DNA from: Microcoleus sp. GA_180221_E-2-1-MAG-45_12
Lineage (GTDB): Bacteria; Cyanobacteriota; Cyanobacteriia; Cyanobacteriales; JAAUUE01
DNA length: 38,524 bases
Direction of reading: 5' to 3'
Assembly: GCA_020692245.1 (NCBI GenBank)
Contig: JAIMKT010000013.1
Coordinates: forward strand, 24,553 to 63,076
Shown: positions 2,381 to 12,167 of the stretch, piece after piece
Layout: the number at the start of each line of letters is the position of its first letter
How positions within the stretch are numbered: the stretch's first letter is position 1
Position numbers and translations under genes: made by a program
Notes under the pieces: generated by a model
Seen by the model: the letters and a program-made list of their open reading frames with translations, nothing else
Databases searched by the model: none
What the model was told of the DNA's origin: nothing

Positions 2381-5300
2381 ATGATTTTAGATAATCAAAA
2401 TGATGAAAAGAAAGTCTATACATGGATTTTCAAATATACAGAAGAATTGGGAACTTTTGACATCGTTACAGGTTACTTTACCATTGGGGCTTTAGCCGAT
2501 CTTTCCCAACAGGTTAATCATCACATCACTAGATATCGACTGGTTTTGGGGGATATTGTGAATTTAGGTCAAATTGACGATCGTCCCCTAGATTTGCTCA
2601 ATGAAAATATCACGATCGAGGCGGCTCTAAATCTAAGTCGTTCAGCAAGGGAAGTAGTCGCTTTCTTAAAGCAAGAAAAAGTCAAGGTCAAAACCCTAGA
2701 GCCAAATTTTTGTCATGCGAAGTGCTATTTGTTTGACCCATTAAAGAGAGACGATCGCAAAAAATATTTTATTTCCGGTAGCTCCAATTTAACAGAGGCA
2801 GGAATTGGCTTAAAGCCTACTAATAATTTGGAATTAAATATTGCTGAGACTGGCAATAATAACCAATATAAGGAATTAGTAGAGTGGTTTGAATCTCTCT
2901 GGCATAAACCTCAAGCTCATGATCAGAAGACAATTATCGGTAAGGATGGGACAAAGAGAAAAGTAGATTTTAAGCAATATTTGATGGCGGCGATCGAGCA
3001 AATATTTATTGAATATTCTCCAAAGGATATTTACTACAAAATTCTATTTGAATTATTTGGCAATCAAATCCTCGAAATTGAGAATGATCCAGAGTTTAAT
3101 CGTCAAGTAGGCAGATTAGAAAATACGGCTATTTTTAGTGCGCTCTATGACTTCCAGAAGAAAGGTGTATTGAGTTTGATTCGGATGTTGCAAAAATATA
3201 ACGGGGCAATTTTGGCAGATGCGGTGGGTTTGGGGAAAACTTGGAGTGCCTTGGCTGTGATGAAATTCTTTGCTAGTACCCATGAGATTATTTTGATTTG
3301 TCCCAAGAAACTAGAACAGAATTGGAGTCAATACCTCAAAAGAAGAGGCTCAAAATTTGAGACAGATCAGTTTGATTTTTTGGTGAGGTTTCATACAGAT
3401 TTAAGCGAAGTGCGGATGGATTCCTATGGTGTGGGAATGGCACATTTAACCAGTGAGAAAGCAAAGTTAATTGTAATTGATGAAAGTCATAATCTACGAA
3501 ATAGCAAGGCAAATCGCTATAAATTTCTCATGGAGCAGATTCTCCAGAAAAATCAAGATGTTAAAGTTCTATTAATATCAGCCACCCCAATTAATAACTC
3601 TTTGGATGATGTGAAAAATCAGTTTAAGCTCATGGTACAGGGAGATGTGCAGGGCTATGAGGATAAGTTGGGAGTCAGAAATATTGATTCTTCTTTTGGG
3701 CAGGCTAAAACTGCTTTTAAGCAATGGCGTGAAGAAGCTAATCCGTGTATTGGAGATTTCATTAAAAAACTTTCGGGGAATGATTTCTTTAGGTTAACGG
3801 ATTCTTTGCTAGTAGCTCGGACTCGGAAGATGATAGAAACCCAAGAAACTGGTTTATTATTTCCTACCAAAAACAAGCCAGAAAATTTATTTGTTACTCC
3901 TCACCAGCTTGGCAATTTTGAAACCTTTGAGGAATTATTTGATCACTTTCCACCAAGGTTATCGGGTTATCAGCCAGCTTTCTATGCCGATGATGGTTCG
4001 GGAGCGAAGAAAAACACAACGGAAGATGAAAAACTGCGTGATTATTTTCTAGCAAAAATGATTTATATTCTGATGGTGAAGCGGCTAGAATCTTCTTGGT
4101 TTTCTTTCTATTCAACAGTTAAAAAGATTCGGGATCATCATCAGAATGCTTTGGATAAAGTTAAAGCCTACCAAGACGATCGAGCTAATTTAGGAGCTAA
4201 TTTAGGAGCTAATTCAGGAGTTAACTCAGGAATAGATATTAATTTTGATATTAATAACCTAGATGTAGAGGAAGAAGATGATGAATTTGTCAAAGAAATA
4301 GAAGAATATACCCTTGGCAAAAAGCGTAAAATTAGGATTGCGGAGATCGATCGAGCTGGGAATCTGGACAAGTTTAAGACCGACCTAAAAATAGACTTAA
4401 ATGATCTGGATCATCTCTATATAAACTTACAAAAATTTGCTCAAAAGCTAGAAAAAGAGCTATCTAGTACAGTCAAAAAAGTATCTAGATACAAATCTTG
4501 TGATGATAAGTTAGAGGTATTAATTAGTAAGATTTTAGATAAGCAGCGATCGGGCATAAATAACCATAATCAAAAAGTAGTTATCTTCACAGTTTATCGA
4601 GATACAGCTAGATATTTGTATGGCCAACTCCGGGCTAGGGGCTTTGAGAAAATTGCCATGGTTTCGGGGACAGAGGCTTACAGTGATGATCATGATCAGC
4701 CGCAAAAAATGTCAACAATCCTTGAAAGATTTGCCCCCTACACTAAACTATTTTCTGAAAAACAATGGGATTTTTTATCTGAGCAAACAGGACTAGCTGC
4801 CTTTGGAACATGGCAAGATTGGATTGCGGAAAATCATCCAGAGACTTACCAGAAATTGACTAAACCCCTTGATATTTTAATTGCTACGGATGTTCTCAGT
4901 GAGGGGCAGAACTTGCAGGATGCTGACATGGTGATTAACTACGATATCCATTGGAATCCGGTCAGAATTATTCAACGCATGGGACGGATCGATCGCTTAG
5001 GAAGTCCCAATGAGCAAATTTTTGGCATTAACTTTTGGCCTTCGGATAATATTAATTCCTATCTCAATCTCCAAGGCAGGATCGAGCAACGGATGGCGGC
5101 GATGCGGTTGGCTGGCTCGGAGGTAGATATGCAGTTCTCGGAGAGTTTTGCCAAGATGGCTCATGATGAGGAACTCGATCGAAAAATGAACGATCGGATG
5201 ATGGAGCAGATGCAGATCACTTGGGATGATATTGAGGGGGGCGATCAGGGTTTGGGCTTTGATAGTTTATCTTTGGAGCGCTATCGACAGGATCTATTGG

Positions 5301-5788
5301 CGGAGTTTAACCGGGATAAGGATAAGTATCGGCAGATGCCCAAGGGGGTATATTCGGGCTTTGGGGGAGAATTGGCGGGAGATGGTTGCCAGGAGGGAAT
5401 TGTGGCTTTGTTGGGCTATCCGGCGAAACCTGCGAAGAGTGTCGATCATCAATATCAGGTGTTTGATTTAATTTATATCGATAAGTCGGGCCAGTTAATT
5501 TTGAATAATCAACAGGAAGTGTTAGATTTTTTGATTTTGCAGAAGGAAAAGGCGAGATTTATTCCGTCGGGGGTCGATCGAGGAGAACCGGAGGCGATCG
5601 ATGAGTTGGTGAAGGCGCTGAAAACTTGGTTGAGTAGTCAAGGAGAGCAGGAACCACGAGATCTATTAGCTAAAATCAAGAAGGGGGATAAGGTTACTTT
5701 AGAAAGCATTAAGCAAAATATCAAAGTTGAGGAGAAATTTCAGATGGATAAGTTTGATTTGGTGGGGTGGATGTTGGTGAGTAAATGA
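2381..5788 (+). CDS. phospholipase D-like nuclease domain fused to SNF2-type helicase
   Basis: N-terminal HKD-like motif (HAKCYLFDP...FISGSSNLTEAGI). Helicase motif I ILADAVGLGKTWSAL, motif II VIDESHNLRN, motif III LISATPINN, motifs V/VI ATDVLSEGQNLQDADMVINYDIHWNPVRIIQRMGRIDRLG. Confidence 0.9.
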   Translation: MILDNQNDEKKVYTWIFKYTEELGTFDIVTGYFTIGALADLSQQVNHHITRYRLVLGDIVNLGQIDDRPLDLLNENITIEAALNLSRSAREVVAFLKQEKVKVKTLEPNFCHAKCYLFDPLKRDDRKKYFISGSSNLTEAGIGLKPTNNLELNIAETGNNNQYKELVEWFESLWHKPQAHDQKTIIGKDGTKRKVDFKQYLMAAIEQIFIEYSPKDIYYKILFELFGNQILEIENDPEFNRQVGRLENTAIFSALYDFQKKGVLSLIRMLQKYNGAILADAVGLGKTWSALAVMKFFASTHEIILICPKKLEQNWSQYLKRRGSKFETDQFDFLVRFHTDLSEVRMDSYGVGMAHLTSEKAKLIVIDESHNLRNSKANRYKFLMEQILQKNQDVKVLLISATPINNSLDDVKNQFKLMVQGDVQGYEDKLGVRNIDSSFGQAKTAFKQWREEANPCIGDFIKKLSGNDFFRLTDSLLVARTRKMIETQETGLLFPTKNKPENLFVTPHQLGNFETFEELFDHFPPRLSGYQPAFYADDGSGAKKNTTEDEKLRDYFLAKMIYILMVKRLESSWFSFYSTVKKIRDHHQNALDKVKAYQDDRANLGANLGANSGVNSGIDINFDINNLDVEEEDDEFVKEIEEYTLGKKRKIRIAEIDRAGNLDKFKTDLKIDLNDLDHLYINLQKFAQKLEKELSSTVKKVSRYKSCDDKLEVLISKILDKQRSGINNHNQKVVIFTVYRDTARYLYGQLRARGFEKIAMVSGTEAYSDDHDQPQKMSTILERFAPYTKLFSEKQWDFLSEQTGLAAFGTWQDWIAENHPETYQKLTKPLDILIATDVLSEGQNLQDADMVINYDIHWNPVRIIQRMGRIDRLGSPNEQIFGINFWPSDNINSYLNLQGRIEQRMAAMRLAGSEVDMQFSESFAKMAHDEELDRKMNDRMMEQMQITWDDIEGGDQGLGFDSLSLERYRQDLLAEFNRDKDKYRQMPKGVYSGFGGELAGDGCQEGIVALLGYPAKPAKSVDHQYQVFDLIYIDKSGQLILNNQQEVLDFLILQKEKARFIPSGVDRGEPEAIDELVKALKTWLSSQGEQEPRDLLAKIKKGDKVTLESIKQNIKVEEKFQMDKFDLVGWMLVSK
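4184..4231. repeat. 4 x 12-bp tandem repeat within the PLD-helicase gene
   Basis: gctaatttagga gctaatttagga gctaattcagga gttaactcagga, encoding ANLGANLGANSGVNSG. Confidence 0.9.
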
Positions 5789-6048
5789 TAAGGTGGCTAA
5801 AACATGCAGAAGAAAATTTGTTAGAGCGAGAAATATCAAGGGAAGTAGTAGAAAAGACTATTTTGTCTCCTGAATTGATTGTTCCAGATAAAATACACCT
5901 AAATCGACAAGTTTATATGCGACGGTATTTTGATGAGTTATTAGAAAGTGAAATGCTCTGTCGAGTTGTCATTGAAGAAGAGATCGGGGGTAAGTTGGTA
6001 GTAACAGTTTATAAGACATCACAAATTAAACGATATTTCAAGGTATAA
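5785..6048 (+). CDS. DUF4258-like small protein (putative toxin of a TA-like pair)
   Basis: 87 aa, MIRWLKHAEENLLEREISREVVEKTILSPELIVPDK...GGKLVVTVYKTSQIKRYFKV. 4-bp ATGA overlap with the helicase stop. Confidence 0.75.
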   Translation: MIRWLKHAEENLLEREISREVVEKTILSPELIVPDKIHLNRQVYMRRYFDELLESEMLCRVVIEEEIGGKLVVTVYKTSQIKRYFKV

Positions 6049-6077
6049 AAATCAAATTAGGAATTTATAGAGACTAT

Positions 6078-6281
6078 ATGAAAATTAAATTTGATCAAGA
6101 GAGTGATACTTTAACTATTATTTTTCGAGAGGCAAGGATTAGGGAATCTGATGAGATCCGCCCGAATGTGATTGCAGATTTTGGGTATGACGGTAAACTG
6201 GTGCGGTTGGAGATTTTAGATGCTCAGAGTGTAGTGGAAAATACCCATGAGTTTTTATATGCGTTTGAGGAAGCAAAATGA
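6078..6281 (+). CDS. DUF2283 family protein (putative partner/antitoxin)
   Basis: 67 aa, MKIKFDQESDTLTIIFREARIRESDEIRPNVIADFGYDGKLVRLEILDAQ, which matches the DUF2283 pattern. Follows the DUF4258-like gene. Confidence 0.8.
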   Translation: MKIKFDQESDTLTIIFREARIRESDEIRPNVIADFGYDGKLVRLEILDAQSVVENTHEFLYAFEEAK

Positions 6282-9200
6282 ACTTAAATATTTTCAATCA
6301 ATCAGATTTTTTAGTAGCTTTACGGGATTTTTTTGCGGCGTTGCAAGTGCCAATAAATATGGTGACGGATAAGCCAATTTCTGTTAGGAATATTCTCGAA
6401 AATAGTTATCAAGATAAGGAATCTTTTCGGTTGATGGATGAGGTGTATTTTTTGGGGATGGTGGATGATGGGGCGTTTCGGGGGTGTGAGGGTTTAGATT
6501 TGGCGGCGGTGCAAGGGCTGGAGGAAGATTATGATGGGATTGTGATTTTTGGGGTGACTTTGAAGAGGCGGGATCAGGGGAAGTTGCCGACTCGATCGCA
6601 GTTAGCAGAAATATCACGGGCGTTTAATCGAGAGTTTTGGCATACTCCGGTGGTGGTGGTGTTTCGGTATGGGGGTGTTGAGGGGGAATATCTGGCTTTT
6701 GCGAATACGGAGCGATCGCAGTACAAGCAACAATGGCGGGAGGGAGAAAAGGCGGGCAAGGTGACAATATTACGGGATATTAATATCAGGGAAACCCACG
6801 TAGGACACCAGAAGATTTTGGCAGAGTTAAGGATTCCGACCACGGGAAAAGATCGGGTAGATTCTTTTGCAAAGTTATACGCTTATTGGCGCAAGGTTTT
6901 AGATGTTAGTTTGCTAAATAAAGAATTTTATAAGGAGGTATCTAATTGGTATTTTAATGCTTGTAAGAAGGTGATTTTTCCGAAGGATGCGAAGAGCAAT
7001 CAGGAGAGTTTGATTCGCTTAATTACTCGTTTAATGTTTGTGTGGTTTTTGAAGGAGAAAGGGCTGGTTCCTGATGATTTATTTAAGGAAGGGGACGTAC
7101 GGCAGATTCTGAGGAGTTTGGAGCCGCAGGAAAGTAGCTATTATAAGGCGATTTTACAAAATTTGTTTTTTGCAACGTTGAATACGGAATGGGGGAAACG
7201 GAAGTTTATTAAAGAGAGTTCTGGAGGCAGAAATTCTCAACATATGGTACACAATGTATTGCGGTATCGGGATTATTTCTCTGAACCCGATCGAGCTTTG
7301 TTAGATTATTTTGTGAATGTACCTTTTTTGAATGGGGGTTTGTTTGAGTGTTTGGATGTGGAGCTAGAGAAGGGAAAACCAGAGACAAGAAGGCGGATTG
7401 ATGGGTTTAGTAATGGTGCTGATAATGTTCTATCAATTCCTAATGAGTTGTTTTTTGGGGAGGTGAGGGAGGTTGATCTTAATGCAGATTTTGGGACGAG
7501 TCGGAAGAAGTATCGGGTGCGGGGTTTGATTGATATTTTCAATGGTTATAAGTTTACGATCGCTGAGAATACGCCTTTTGAGGAAGATGTGGCGCTGGAT
7601 CCGGAGCTTTTGGGGCAGGTGTTTGAGAATCTATTGGCGGCTTACAATCCTGAAACTCAGACGACAGCAAGGAAGCAAACGGGTTCTTTTTATACGCCCC
7701 GTGAGATTGTAAATTATATGGTGGATGAGAGTTTGATTGCGTATTTTAAGGAAAAAGTAGAAAGGAAAAGGGAAAAAGTATCGGCTGAGGTGTTGGAGAA
7801 TCGGTTGAGGTTGCTTTTGGATTATCAGTCGGCGGTTAATCCGTTTGGGGATGATGAGGCGACTACTTTGGCTCTGATTGCGGCGATCGATGGTTGCAAG
7901 ATTTTGGATCCGGCGTGTGGGTCGGGGGCGTTTCCCATGGGGGTTTTGCAGAAAATGGTGCATATTTTGAGCAAGCTCGATCCTCATAATGAACGTTGGT
8001 GTACTCAACAAAAGGAGAAGGCGATCGCTCCGCTTTTGGCTGATATCCAGACGGCGGAAAAGATTAGTTATGAGGCAGCACGGGAAAGGGCGATCGCTGA
8101 GTTGCAGGAGGAGCTGGCGAAGATTGAGGCGAGTTTTGAGAATGAGATGGATTATCCCCGGAAGTTGTTTTTGATTCAAAATTGTATTTTTGGGGTGGAT
8201 ATTCAACCGATCGCTGTGCAGATTTCTAAGCTACGTTTCTTTATTTCGTTGATTATTGACCAAAAGGAAGATCATGATGCAGAGAATCGGGGGATTTTGC
8301 CTTTACCGAATCTAGAAACTAAGTTTGTGGCAGCAAATACGCTGATTGGCATGGAGAAGGTAGACCAGTTAAATGTGTTTTTGAGTTTGGAATCTATTGA
8401 GACAAAGAAAAGAGAGTTGGAGAAGTTACGCCGGGAACATTTTTTTGCAAGAAGTCTAGAAACTAAGCGGAAGAAACGAGACCTCGATCGACAGTTACGC
8501 CAAGAAATTGGTCAGATTCTTAAGGATAATAATTATCCCGGTGATAGTGCGGATAAGTTGGCAGCATGGGAACCGTACAATGCAACTATTGCAGCAAGTT
8601 TCTTTGATCCTGAGTGGATGTTTGGAATTGGTGATGGTTTTGATGTTGTGATTGGGAATCCGCCTTATGGAGCGAAAATTACTGATGTTCAGAAAAAATA
8701 TTTTAATAAAGATTATCAATATCAAGACTATCAGCTTGATAGTTATCTATTATTTATAGAAAAATCTTTTTCTTTGGCAAAGAAGTACGGGCAAATTGTT
8801 TTAATTATTCCAAACACATGGCTTCTTAATTTACTATCAAAGAAAATCAGGAAATGGTTATTTAAAGAAAAAACATTTTCTAAAATGATACATTTTAAAA
8901 CTTCTATTTTTGCTGCCGTGGTTGATACAGAAGTTATCATATTTTCAAATAAATTTCCTGATAAAACAAATTTAATATCTATCTCTCTTTACGATGATCA
9001 AGGAATTAACGTTCCGTATAATATAGAGCAAAAAAGGTGGAGTGATACTAATGGAGAGGCTATAAATATATTTGAAACTCCTGAAATTTCTATCATCAGT
9101 GACAAGCTGCGAAAAAACAAACTTCTAGAAGAAATATGTTTTATCACGCAAGGAGCAAAGCCATTTCAAGTTGGGAAAGGTAAACCTCCTCAAACAAAAG

Positions 9201-10003
9201 AAATATTAGAATCTAAACCATTTGTATCCAATTATAAAAAAGATGAAACCTTTCGTCCTTTGCTACGTGGAAGTCTCATCAACAAATATCAAATTCTATG
9301 GAATAAAGACTATTGGATAAGTTTTGGAGATTGGTTGGCTGAACCAAGATATTCTGCTAACTATGATGCTCCAGAGAAAATTGTAATTCGACAAACTGGG
9401 GATTCTCTAGTAGCAGCTTTAGATGACAAACAATTTATTATAAGAGACAATCTGTACTCTATTACGTCAAAAAGTAATGAAATAGATATTTATTTCTTGA
9501 TATCTCTTATTAATTCTCCACTTCTAAATTGGTTTTATCAGACAGTTATTAATCCAGAAAGAGGTGAAGCTTTAGCACAGGTAAAACGAGGTCATTTAGC
9601 TAGATTACCTATAATTGAATGTTCGTTTAAAGAACAAGCTATTTTGAGATGCTTAGTTAAATATATTATCTACCTTAAAGAGCTTCTTAAAGGCATTCCT
9701 AGTAGTGGCAAAGAATTTATGGCATCTGCTGATGACCAGTTAATGCTTAGTTACTTCGAGCAAATCATTGATGCCGCAGTCATGGAGCTATATTTACCTG
9801 AAGAACTCCATACAGGAGACAAATACTTCATGCGTCATCTCTTGTCAGAAAACCTCCCAAACATAGACAAAATCAAAGGCGATAAAATAATAGAATTGCG
9901 TGTAATATTTCGGCGGCTTTTTAATAGAGATCATCCGATTAGAACTAATATTTACTTTCTTGGCAATCTTGACATCGTAAAAATCATCAGAGGTCAAATA
10001 TGA
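6278..10003 (+). CDS. Eco57I/type IIG-like N6-adenine DNA methyltransferase
   Basis: SAM motif I ILDPACGSGAFPMGVLQKM, catalytic motif IV VIGNPPYG, and a conserved-looking tail HPIRTNIYFLGNLDIVKIIRGQI. 4-bp overlap with the preceding gene. Confidence 0.9.
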   Translation: MNLNIFNQSDFLVALRDFFAALQVPINMVTDKPISVRNILENSYQDKESFRLMDEVYFLGMVDDGAFRGCEGLDLAAVQGLEEDYDGIVIFGVTLKRRDQGKLPTRSQLAEISRAFNREFWHTPVVVVFRYGGVEGEYLAFANTERSQYKQQWREGEKAGKVTILRDINIRETHVGHQKILAELRIPTTGKDRVDSFAKLYAYWRKVLDVSLLNKEFYKEVSNWYFNACKKVIFPKDAKSNQESLIRLITRLMFVWFLKEKGLVPDDLFKEGDVRQILRSLEPQESSYYKAILQNLFFATLNTEWGKRKFIKESSGGRNSQHMVHNVLRYRDYFSEPDRALLDYFVNVPFLNGGLFECLDVELEKGKPETRRRIDGFSNGADNVLSIPNELFFGEVREVDLNADFGTSRKKYRVRGLIDIFNGYKFTIAENTPFEEDVALDPELLGQVFENLLAAYNPETQTTARKQTGSFYTPREIVNYMVDESLIAYFKEKVERKREKVSAEVLENRLRLLLDYQSAVNPFGDDEATTLALIAAIDGCKILDPACGSGAFPMGVLQKMVHILSKLDPHNERWCTQQKEKAIAPLLADIQTAEKISYEAARERAIAELQEELAKIEASFENEMDYPRKLFLIQNCIFGVDIQPIAVQISKLRFFISLIIDQKEDHDAENRGILPLPNLETKFVAANTLIGMEKVDQLNVFLSLESIETKKRELEKLRREHFFARSLETKRKKRDLDRQLRQEIGQILKDNNYPGDSADKLAAWEPYNATIAASFFDPEWMFGIGDGFDVVIGNPPYGAKITDVQKKYFNKDYQYQDYQLDSYLLFIEKSFSLAKKYGQIVLIIPNTWLLNLLSKKIRKWLFKEKTFSKMIHFKTSIFAAVVDTEVIIFSNKFPDKTNLISISLYDDQGINVPYNIEQKRWSDTNGEAINIFETPEISIISDKLRKNKLLEEICFITQGAKPFQVGKGKPPQTKEILESKPFVSNYKKDETFRPLLRGSLINKYQILWNKDYWISFGDWLAEPRYSANYDAPEKIVIRQTGDSLVAALDDKQFIIRDNLYSITSKSNEIDIYFLISLINSPLLNWFYQTVINPERGEALAQVKRGHLARLPIIECSFKEQAILRCLVKYIIYLKELLKGIPSSGKEFMASADDQLMLSYFEQIIDAAVMELYLPEELHTGDKYFMRHLLSENLPNIDKIKGDKIIELRVIFRRLFNRDHPIRTNIYFLGNLDIVKIIRGQI

Positions 10004-11523
10004 GAATTATAAAACTAGAAATTCAAGACTTTCGAGCTTTCTATGGTAATCACATCATCGAATTTGCTAAAGAAGGAGAAAGAGGTAAGCAAAATTTATT
10101 ACTCTATGGTGAAAATGGTAGTGGGAAATCATCATTATTACTTGCTGTTCAATATATTTTAGAGTCTGCAACCAAAGACTTAAACTTTGATAATTATAAG
10201 AATATCTTTCGTGAACTGTCAAGTTCCCGTTATATCGAATTAACTCTTAGAGAAACAGTAAACAAACCAAGTCTAGTTAGTAAATGGTCGCCTGATATTA
10301 TCACTACTGATATTCAAGACATTAGAGACGCATCCCAAGCCAAAGGAATTTTAGATTATAAAAAACTGCTTGAAGTTCATTTTATCCATCGTCAAGAATC
10401 AAAAGTTAATATCTTTGATTTACTAGTTAAATCCCTTTTAGCACAATGTATTAACGATATCACCCCTACCAAAACCTTCTCCCAACAATGGCAAGACCTA
10501 GTAGATACAGTCCCCAAACGCCCTAGCAACACTCGTCAAATTCCTCAATTTCAACAATCAGCTAATTTATTTAATAGTGGACTGCAATCAAAACTAAATG
10601 AATTACAAAATGAAATTAGTAGCCTCATGAGTTACTTTAGTCATGCAGTTAAAATATCCTTTGATTTTCAAGGTGTCAATTTTAACTATGATGCCAAATA
10701 CAATCCAGAAAACAAAGAAAATAGTATTAAAGACAAAGAAATTTTCTTAAATGTTGAACTACTTAACGAACCAGTTGATAGCCCTCACCACTTTCTTAAC
10801 GAAGCAAAACTCACAGCAATCGCTATTAGTATTTATCTAAGTTCCTTATTAATTGCCCCCAAACCAAAACTAAAACTATTAGTCCTAGATGATATCTTCA
10901 TTGGCTTAGATATGTCTAACCGTTTACCATTAATAGACATTATCAAAGAAAAATTTTCTGATTACCAAATTTTCTTAATGACCTACGATCGTGAATGGTA
11001 TGAAATTCTTAAACAAAGGCTAGATGGCAACAAATGGATATATAAAGAACTCTATCGTGGCGAACTGAAAATTAAAGATGATGATGGTAATGAAAAGGTA
11101 ATTGCGGAAATCCCCATCTGGAAACAGGACAAAGATTATTTAGAAAAAGCTAAGGATTATCTCAACATTCACCACGAACCAAGAATAGCGGCTGTCTATC
11201 TACGTATCGCCTTTGAAGTTATTCTTAAAGAGTTTTGTAATGCAAAAAGCATAAAAGTTATTTATAAAGAAGAAGTCAAAAAACTATCAAGCGATGATTT
11301 TTGGAAAGAAGTCAGAAAAGCTAAGAAAAACGATGGTACTTTATACGTTAATGAATTCTTAGCCTTTGATATCGATATCTACCGTAGTATCATCATGAAT
11401 CCCCTCAGCCATTCACGTATTACCCAGACTTATTCAGGAGAGGTTGGAGAGGCGATCGCTAAGGTTGAAAAGCTAAAAGATGCCCTCTTCCCACCGCCAC
11501 CGAAGCAGAACAAAAAGCAATAG
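10000..11523 (+). CDS. RecF/SMC-like AAA ATPase with extra C-terminal helical domain
   Basis: Walker A LLLYGENGSGKSSLL, signature-like LNEAKLTAIAISIYLSSLL, Walker B KLLVLDDIFIGLD, then FLMTYDREWYEILK. C-terminal helical region IHHEPRIAAVYLRIAFEVILKEFC...NPLSHSR. 4-bp overlap with the MTase stop. Confidence 0.88.
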   Translation: MRIIKLEIQDFRAFYGNHIIEFAKEGERGKQNLLLYGENGSGKSSLLLAVQYILESATKDLNFDNYKNIFRELSSSRYIELTLRETVNKPSLVSKWSPDIITTDIQDIRDASQAKGILDYKKLLEVHFIHRQESKVNIFDLLVKSLLAQCINDITPTKTFSQQWQDLVDTVPKRPSNTRQIPQFQQSANLFNSGLQSKLNELQNEISSLMSYFSHAVKISFDFQGVNFNYDAKYNPENKENSIKDKEIFLNVELLNEPVDSPHHFLNEAKLTAIAISIYLSSLLIAPKPKLKLLVLDDIFIGLDMSNRLPLIDIIKEKFSDYQIFLMTYDREWYEILKQRLDGNKWIYKELYRGELKIKDDDGNEKVIAEIPIWKQDKDYLEKAKDYLNIHHEPRIAAVYLRIAFEVILKEFCNAKSIKVIYKEEVKKLSSDDFWKEVRKAKKNDGTLYVNEFLAFDIDIYRSIIMNPLSHSRITQTYSGEVGEAIAKVEKLKDALFPPPPKQNKKQ

Positions 11524-11770: not shown

Positions 11771-11795
11771 TTAATCCGCATACAAACACATGGAC
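11771..11795. repeat. 25-bp repeat overlapping the GxxExxY start codon
   Basis: ttaatccgcatacaaacacatggac versus ttaatccgcacataaacacttgaac at 12153-12177 (21 of 25 identical by eye). Confidence 0.8.
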
Positions 11796-12167
11796 TTAAA
11801 ACACCAAGACATCACCCAAAAGATCATCGGCGCATCCTTTGAAGTCCATAAATTTCTTGGTAACGGTTTCCAAGAAGTAATCTATCAACGTGCTTTAGCC
11901 TACGAATTTCATCAGGCAGGCTTAACTTTTGCTAGGGAAATTGAACAACATATCTATTACAAAAACCTACCAGAGCCGATCGGGACACGCCGGGCTGATT
12001 TTGTTGTGGAAGAAAAAATATTAGTCGAACTCAAAGCCAAGAGCGAACTAGAACCCGCACACTTTGCCCAAGCCCTAAACTATCTGAAAGTCTATAAACT
12101 CGAAATCGGACTATTGATTAATTTTGGAAGTAAAAGTTTAGAATTTAAGAGATTAATCCGCACATAA
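11790..12167 (+). CDS. GxxExxY family protein (predicted PD-(D/E)XK-like fold)
   Basis: MDLKHQDITQKIIGASFEVHKFLGNGFQEVIYQRALAYEF...RRADFVVEEKILVELKAKSELEPAHFAQALNYLKV. It has the GxxExxY-type GNGFQEVIY motif and a D...ELK core. Confidence 0.92.
   Translation: MDLKHQDITQKIIGASFEVHKFLGNGFQEVIYQRALAYEFHQAGLTFAREIEQHIYYKNLPEPIGTRRADFVVEEKILVELKAKSELEPAHFAQALNYLKVYKLEIGLLINFGSKSLEFKRLIRT

What the first reader, a model, noticed from the sequence alone, without database searches (positions are those of the whole stretch)
2381..11523. Five-gene translationally coupled cassette: PLD-SNF2 helicase, DUF4258, DUF2283, Eco57I-like MTase, RecF-like ATPase
Seen directly: all five genes are on the + strand. 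Helicase/DUF4258 overlap at 5785-5788, DUF2283/MTase at 6278-6281 and MTase/ATPase at 10000-10003, each a 4-bp ATGA. Only a ~30-bp gap separates DUF4258 from DUF2283. Established knowledge: a helicase plus PLD nuclease plus methyltransferase recalls DISARM, and a methyltransferase plus ATPase recalls BREX-like systems. But I see no DUF1998 (DrmB), no PglZ, no BrxL and no separate type III Res. Inference: this is a self-contained modification/anti-phage system in which MTase-marked self DNA is spared, the PLD-helicase is the effector or translocase, and the ATPase is a sensor or regulator. It may be an undescribed or poorly described variant.
Basis: partly seen in the sequence, partly recalled or inferred. 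Interest (0 to 1): 0.78.

Follow-up and report, generated by a model that had tools for sequence, protein, structure and literature searches.

The report
Restriction-modification operon with tethered guard ATPase
A cyanobacterium carries an intact DNA-cutting and DNA-marking defence pair (a nuclease-helicase plus a methyltransferase) with add-on genes, including an ATPase that looks built to watch over the pair and perhaps shut the cell down if a virus disables it; the core pair was already known, and the add-on arrangement is the new part.

Summary
In detail: five intact + strand ORFs at the stated coordinates, with 4-bp ATGA overlaps at 5785, 6278 and 10000. The five genes are not one conserved unit. 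The core is two genes: a PLD(HKD)-SNF2 helicase and an Eco57I/TaqI_C-type N6-adenine methyltransferase. They stay paired in most relatives, down to ~25-30% helicase identity, in cyanobacteria, Bacteroidota and Lactobacillales. This pair is not DISARM, BREX or Hma/BR, and its architecture was described, unnamed, on a Lactococcus plasmid in 2018. DUF4258-DUF2283 is a separate two-gene toxin-antitoxin-like pair found elsewhere in this genome. It sits in a slot where most relatives carry an HsdR-N-like nuclease. The ATPase is a module present in a subset. It follows the methyltransferase with an ATGA overlap, and it co-occurs with a conserved ~110-residue methyltransferase C-terminal tail (8/8 with ATPase, 0/10 without). 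Its own C-terminus carries an invariant R-x3-E...N-x2-S-H motif shared with RloC anticodon nucleases, though profile comparison and fold search do not confirm homology. Best reading: an ATP-dependent R-M system with a methyltransferase-docked, PrrC-like guard ATPase. The R-M core is well supported; RNase activity is inferred. New variant of a known kind.

The parts
2381..5788 (+). HKD/PLD-SNF2 helicase (1135 aa): PLDc_2 86-174, SNF2 258-, Helicase_C 821-874. Predicted ATP-dependent translocase-nuclease effector
   Evidence: HxK, GSxN and helicase motifs Walker A, DESH, SATP, V, VI intact
2714..2737 (+). HKD signature HAKCYLFD (residues 112-119); GSSN follows at residue ~133
   Evidence: HxK and GSxN kept in all cyanobacterial, Bacteroidota and Lactobacillales copies tested that pair with this MTase family; not alignable in the four type III-associated homologues tested
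5785..6048 (+). DUF4258 (BECR/RelE-ParE-superfamily toxin-like), 87 aa; ATGA overlap with helicase
   Evidence: family listed as a BECR-fold toxin family in PMC11980606
6078..6281 (+). DUF2283, 67 aa, presumed partner (antitoxin-like) of DUF4258; ATGA overlap with MTase
   Evidence: the same two-gene pair occurs away from the R-M genes in this and related genomes
6278..10003 (+). Eco57I/TaqI_C-type N6-adenine methyltransferase-specificity protein (1241 aa); no recognisable nuclease motif
   Evidence: DPACGSGAF at residue 544 and NPPY at 794
9230..9637 (+). TaqI_C-type target recognition region (res ~985-1120), hypervariable (~20-30% identity between orthologues)
9665..10000 (+). MTase C-terminal tail (res 1130-1241), present only in MTases followed by the ATPase; proposed docking element
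10000..11523 (+). SMC/Rad50-type ABC ATPase (507 aa), Walker A GENGSGKS at 10108-10131; ATGA overlap with MTase
11062..11520 (+). ATPase C-terminal helical domain with invariant R402-x3-E406 ... N467-P-x-S470-H471 (R codon 11203-11205, H codon 11410-11412); candidate HEPN-type RNase domain
   Evidence: not confirmed by profile or fold search
11790..12167 (+). GxxExxY (PDDEXK_3) gene, downstream neighbour, recurring near this system in six loci; accessory, role unknown

Best explanation
This is an ATP-dependent restriction-modification operon with accessory modules. Step 1 (well supported): the MTase carries methylation and target recognition and marks self DNA as N6-methyladenine. The HKD-SNF2 helicase is the restriction subunit: it translocates along unmarked DNA and cuts with its PLD domain. 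Step 2 (inferred): the ABC ATPase docks on the MTase's dedicated C-terminal tail and acts as a guard that senses whether the R-M complex is intact or engaged, as PrrC does on EcoprrI. Step 3 (inferred, weakest): when the R-M complex is blocked or bypassed, the ATPase's C-terminal R-x3-E...N-x2-S-H domain cleaves RNA, perhaps tRNA, and stops growth. DUF4258-DUF2283 is a toxin-antitoxin-like pair inserted in the helicase-MTase slot, where it may stabilise the locus. It is not part of the restriction mechanism. Separate confidence: step 1 ~0.8, ATPase-MTase coupling through the tail ~0.65, RNase effector ~0.35.
For: Core: helicase and MTase are adjacent in relatives at 68-80% helicase identity and at ~30% (L059, L060, L065, L066), in Bacteroidota (L126) and Lactobacillales plasmids (L128, L130, L131). 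All catalytic motifs of the helicase and MTase are intact. Among MTases with ~72% identical N-termini the TRD is too diverged to align well, as expected for a specificity domain. Coupling: the MTase tail is present in 8/8 MTases followed by the ATPase and 0/10 without (Fisher p 2e-5, not corrected for relatedness). It is discordant with N-terminal relatedness: L114, 72% N-terminus, lacks it; L020, ~50%, has it. In a 386-genome search the strong hits to intact MTase tails fell in the same five genomes as the ATPase. The MTase-ATPase ATGA overlap is invariant. Effector: the R-x3-E...N-x2-S-H motif occurs in 9 members of the ATPase family, 4 RloC-type (AAA_13) proteins and only 3 other proteins among 412 ORFs. 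The RloC/PrrC triad is described as Arg-X3-Glu-Xn-His with Ser often before His (PMC2610378). PrrC sits on an R-M system that silences it (PMC3710099).
Against: hhalign of the ATPase C-terminal profile against RloC C-termini gives probability 0.1, no better than shuffled columns. The AAA_13 profile does not hit the ATPase. The E-to-H spacing is 64 versus 31 in PrrC and 36-52 in RloC. The AF2 model of the domain is low-confidence (mean pLDDT 64.8) and Foldseek found nothing. Tail-ATPase co-occurrence could reflect co-transfer of contiguous DNA rather than a protein contact. No methylation or phage data.
Confidence: 0.55

Rival explanations
1. Plain two-gene R-M system; the ATPase is a DNA-binding clamp or translocation regulator of restriction (DndD/MAD3-like), with no RNase activity.
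For: Only an SMC_N/Rad50-type head is detected with confidence; weak local N-terminal similarity to mad3, PbeC, DndD; the core occurs without the ATPase in many relatives.
Against: Invariant R-x3-E and N-x2-S-H residues at the C-terminus are more than a clamp needs.
Confidence: 0.35
2. All five genes are one functional system in which DUF4258 and DUF2283 are structural or regulatory subunits of the restriction complex.
For: 4-bp overlaps at both ends of the DUF pair; a DUF2283 gene with a short DUF4258-like ORF also occupies the slot in L057, and DUF2283 in L114.
Against: Most relatives lack the pair. The pair occurs without R-M genes elsewhere in this genome and in relatives. DUF2283 of L057 is only 30% identical to the window's.
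Confidence: 0.1
3. A catalogued type IIG enzyme: the MTase itself cuts, and the helicase is accessory.
For: Best PADLOC family is REase_MTase_IIG (1.4e-66); the N-terminal 226 aa model is alpha/beta.
Against: No nuclease Pfam hit in the N-terminus; the conserved D..YDGI(L/V)IF.(V/I)TL strand lacks the (D/E)xK pair. The low-confidence fold gave no significant match.
Confidence: 0.1

Closest known systems
PLD-SNF2 + type IIG-like MTase pair of Lactococcus lactis pLd8 orf33/orf34 (PMC6098607)
   Same: Same two proteins with the same domains (PF13091, PF00176, PF00271; MTase with PF12950 and no nuclease domain) and the same assignment of restriction to the PLD domain.
   Different: No ATPase with MTase tail and no DUF pair described there. 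pLd8 itself was not compared; same-architecture lactic plasmids L128 and L131 are only 27-34% identical.
PrrC with EcoprrI (and RloC)
   Same: ABC-ATPase with a C-terminal R-x3-E...(S)H motif, encoded with an R-M system.
   Different: R-M partner is HKD-SNF2/IIG-like rather than type Ic hsdMSR; no AAA_13 match; longer E-H spacing; homology of the C-terminal domain not detected.
DUF499-centred BREX-related (Hma / BR) systems, Type-2 BR
   Same: HKD-SNF2 helicase + N6-MTase + ATPase logic (PMC12839542).
   Different: ATPase is SMC/Rad50-type ABC, not DUF499; no DUF3780.
CxC-ABC/Pbe systems
   Same: HKD-SF2 helicase + ABC ATPase, sometimes with a methylase (PMC10853773).
   Different: ATPase has only two cysteines and no CxC/CxxC; no DndE partner found.
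DISARM
   Same: SNF2 helicase, PLD, IIG-like MTase domains.
   Different: No DrmA/DrmB (DUF1998); DrmD model 124.8 bits vs 610 cut-off.

Membership tests
Unnamed PLD-SNF2 + IIG-like MTase two-gene R-M (L. lactis pLd8 orf33/34 type) | PLDc_2 + SNF2 + Helicase_C in one protein | tested here: met
   motifs intact
Unnamed PLD-SNF2 + IIG-like MTase two-gene R-M (L. lactis pLd8 orf33/34 type) | Adjacent large MTase with TaqI_C and no nuclease domain | tested here: met
   in the window about 490 bp holding the two DUF genes lie between the helicase and MTase genes
DISARM | DrmB (DUF1998) and DrmA present | tested here: not met
   no DUF1998 in the five proteins or the flanking ORFs scanned; DrmD 124.8 vs 610 bits
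BREX | PglZ and BrxC present with PglX | tested here: not met
   no PglZ/BrxC domain; PglX 82.8 vs 500 bits
DUF499-centred BR / Hma | DUF499 ATPase (and DUF3780 for Type-2) | tested here: not met
   ATPase hits SMC_N/AAA_23 only; no DUF3780
MADS | MAD2 MTase above NCBIfam cut-off, with other mad genes | tested here: not met
   45.7 vs 720 bits
Type IIG | Nuclease catalytic site in the MTase polypeptide | tested here: inconclusive
   no Pfam nuclease and no (D/E)xK at the candidate strand; low-confidence model uninformative
[quoted passage not shown]
PrrC/RloC anticodon nucleases | C-terminal Arg-X3-Glu-Xn-His triad, Ser before His | tested here: met
   R402, E406, S470, H471 invariant in the family; spacing 64 exceeds the published range
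PrrC/RloC anticodon nucleases | Profile similarity to AAA_13 or to RloC C-termini | tested here: not met
   no AAA_13 hit; hhalign probability 0.1
PrrC/RloC anticodon nucleases | tRNA anticodon cleavage | not testable with these tools
   needs biochemistry
Type II toxin-antitoxin (DUF4258-DUF2283) | Recurrent compact two-gene pair with a BECR-family toxin | tested here: met
   all six DUF4258 loci in G000, G394 and G172 (window's included) are directly followed by DUF2283; DUF4258 is BECR-fold
Type II toxin-antitoxin (DUF4258-DUF2283) | Toxicity neutralised by the partner | not testable with these tools
   no paper found that holds both names or DUF2283 with antitoxin

The most novel reading that the evidence does not exclude
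The ATPase is a new family of R-M guard ribonuclease: it docks on a dedicated C-terminal tail of a IIG-like methyltransferase and, when the HKD-SNF2 restriction complex is disabled, cleaves RNA with an R-x3-E...N-x2-S-H site, so PrrC-type back-up immunity is not tied to type I enzymes.
Probability: 0.3. Interest if true: 0.7.

Novelty: new variant of a known kind. Interest (0 to 1): 0.45.

Why it matters
It separates a conserved, widespread but unnamed R-M core from exchangeable slots: an HsdR-N-like nuclease or TA pair in the middle, a guard-type ATPase or GxxExxY at the end. It also gives a specific testable rule (MTase tail implies ATPase partner) for how back-up effectors attach to R-M systems. 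If the ATPase is an RNase, PrrC-like second-line defence would extend beyond type I systems.

Tried and rejected
DISARM, BREX, Hma/BR, MADS and Pbe membership: rejected on profile scores or missing components. A fixed five-gene unit: rejected by neighbourhoods. AF2 of the ATPase C-terminus and MTase N-terminus with shallow permitted alignments: low confidence, Foldseek uninformative. Profile searches of the ATPase C-terminus in PDB, Pfam and PADLOC gave only weak hits, a few of them to HEPN-type families (DUF4145 0.059, PaREP1 0.08, Csx1/Csm6 0.013) among other weak non-HEPN hits. hhalign to RloC C-termini: negative. The 2020 ABC-ATPase classification paper (doi 10.1093/nar/gkaa726) was not held, so prior description of this ATPase there could not be excluded. 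Type III-associated HKD-SNF2 homologues on plasmids are a different system: DUF4391 + Mod (+ Res in most).

Full report
Observation. Pfam gives PLDc_2, SNF2 and Helicase_C for the first protein, DUF4258 (marginal) and DUF2283 for the small ones, Eco57I and TaqI_C for the MTase, and SMC_N/AAA_23 for the ATPase. The window lies in a 4.2-Mb assembly whose closest relatives found by the search for related loci are cyanobacteria. The locus has G+C of 35-42% against mostly 44-47% downstream, consistent with acquisition, though the 2 kb upstream is also low (40%).

What is conserved. In whole-genome searches and annotated plasmids, close helicase orthologues (68-80% identity) are followed by this MTase in L003, L021, L022, L023, L024, L057, L058, L072, L114, L115, L116, L117 and L119. 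L118 has lost the MTase and L120 keeps only a helicase fragment. The pairing extends to helicases only ~30% identical with MTases 43-53% identical (L059, L060, L065, L066), to Parabacteroides (L126; helicase 25%, MTase 46%) and to Lactobacillales plasmids (L128, L130, L131). HKD (HxK), GSxN and the helicase motifs are kept in these pairs. So the core is two genes. The architecture was described on L. lactis pLd8 in 2018, where the PLD domain was proposed to do the cutting.

Exchangeable slots. Between helicase and MTase, nine relatives carry a 204-205-aa protein. Pfam matches it to HSDR_N in the two copies scanned (L003, L023), and all nine keep the RID, (V/I)EAK and QALxY residues expected of an active PD-(D/E)XK nuclease of the HsdR type. 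The window has DUF4258-DUF2283 there instead. L057 has a 54-aa DUF4258-like ORF, a DUF2283 and the nuclease, L114 a DUF2283 and the nuclease; L021, L022 and L117 have nothing. DUF4258-DUF2283 also occurs as a stand-alone pair elsewhere in this genome and in two relatives, and DUF4258 is listed among BECR-fold toxin families. I therefore treat it as a TA-like insert. Downstream, GxxExxY, a PIN gene pair, or the ATPase can follow.

The ATPase. It is present with the core in the window, L003 (split there by a frameshift), L021, L022 and (distant) L023, as a fragment in L024, and with at least part of an MTase in L002, L020 and L071; L004 holds only an ATPase fragment. Every MTase-ATPase junction of the close family overlaps by ATGA. 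MTases followed by this ATPase share a ~110-residue C-terminal tail (52-89% identity) even though their TRDs are barely alignable; MTases without the ATPase lack the tail (8/8 vs 0/10; p 2e-5 uncorrected for relatedness). L023, with a distant ATPase, has a different tail. In a 386-genome search, tail hits were the five genomes with the ATPase plus one orphan pseudogene remnant (G197) and one marginal hit. Tail presence does not follow N-terminal relatedness. This argues for functional coupling, with contiguous co-transfer as the main alternative.

The ATPase C-terminus. Across ten sequences only eleven columns are invariant; R48, E52, N113, S116 and H117 (window R402, E406, N467, S470, H471) are among them. 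The published RloC/PrrC triad is Arg-X3-Glu-Xn-His with Ser often before His. RloC-type proteins from this phylum have R-x3-E and N-x2-S-H in the same order. Among 412 ORFs of at least 250 aa from the session's loci, the combined motif is in nine members of this ATPase family, four RloC-type proteins and three others; shuffles of the window domain give it with p 5e-4. Against homology: hhalign probability 0.1, no AAA_13 hit, longer spacing, no fold match. So the motif is a lead, not a demonstration.

Mechanism. Shown by sequence: intact MTase and helicase-nuclease motifs, conserved pairing, variable TRD. Inferred: methylation protects self and the HKD-SNF2 protein restricts unmarked DNA. Further inferred: the ATPase docks on the MTase tail and guards the system, PrrC-like. 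Least certain: RNase action.

Relation to known systems. It fails defining features of DISARM, BREX, BR/Hma, MADS and Pbe (membership table). It meets the features of the unnamed PLD-SNF2 + IIG-like MTase pair. It may work like, but cannot be filed as, a PrrC system.

Noticed in passing
L061:6835-12483, L062:7838-13486; also L129:12616-17365: An HKD-SNF2 helicase is followed by a 1882-aa protein; in L061 it contains complete sigma-70 regions 1.2-4 and an AAA domain. On a Planktothrix plasmid a separate sigma-70 gene sits next to the SNF2 gene and a related MTase. A sigma factor inside a defence-like locus is unusual.
   Followed up: no
L063:4793-9283: One 1496-aa ORF joins the N-terminal half of the helicase to the C-terminal half of the MTase, apparently an in-frame deletion fusion of the two core genes.
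   Followed up: no
L003, L023, L024, L057, L058, L114, L115, L118, L119 (helicase-MTase slot): A 204-205-aa stand-alone HsdR-N-like nuclease with invariant D, ExK and QxxxY, absent from the window copy.
   Followed up: partly
L075-L081 (plasmids): HKD-SNF2-family helicases sit with DUF4391 and a type III-like Mod (plus a DEAD/DEAH Res-like protein in most) on plasmids of Firmicutes, Proteobacteria and an archaeon; the HKD motif did not align in the four tested.
   Followed up: partly
L148:3273-3572 (G197): Orphan, degraded copy of the MTase tail with neither MTase nor ATPase beside it.
   Followed up: partly
window:11790-12167; L002, L057, L114, L115, L118: A GxxExxY (PDDEXK_3) gene, 86-92% identical, recurs just downstream of this system in six loci.
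   Followed up: no
L119 (G394, same genus): MTase fragment carries the first 40 residues of the tail at 82% identity and ends at the contig edge, which predicts an ATPase beyond the gap.
   Followed up: no
window:14793-18173: Phytochrome with GGDEF and EAL domains; the genes scanned downstream of it (CobN, Hsp70-like, SAM hydroxide adenosyltransferase and others) look ordinary, so the scanned part of the window is not an extended defence island.
   Followed up: no
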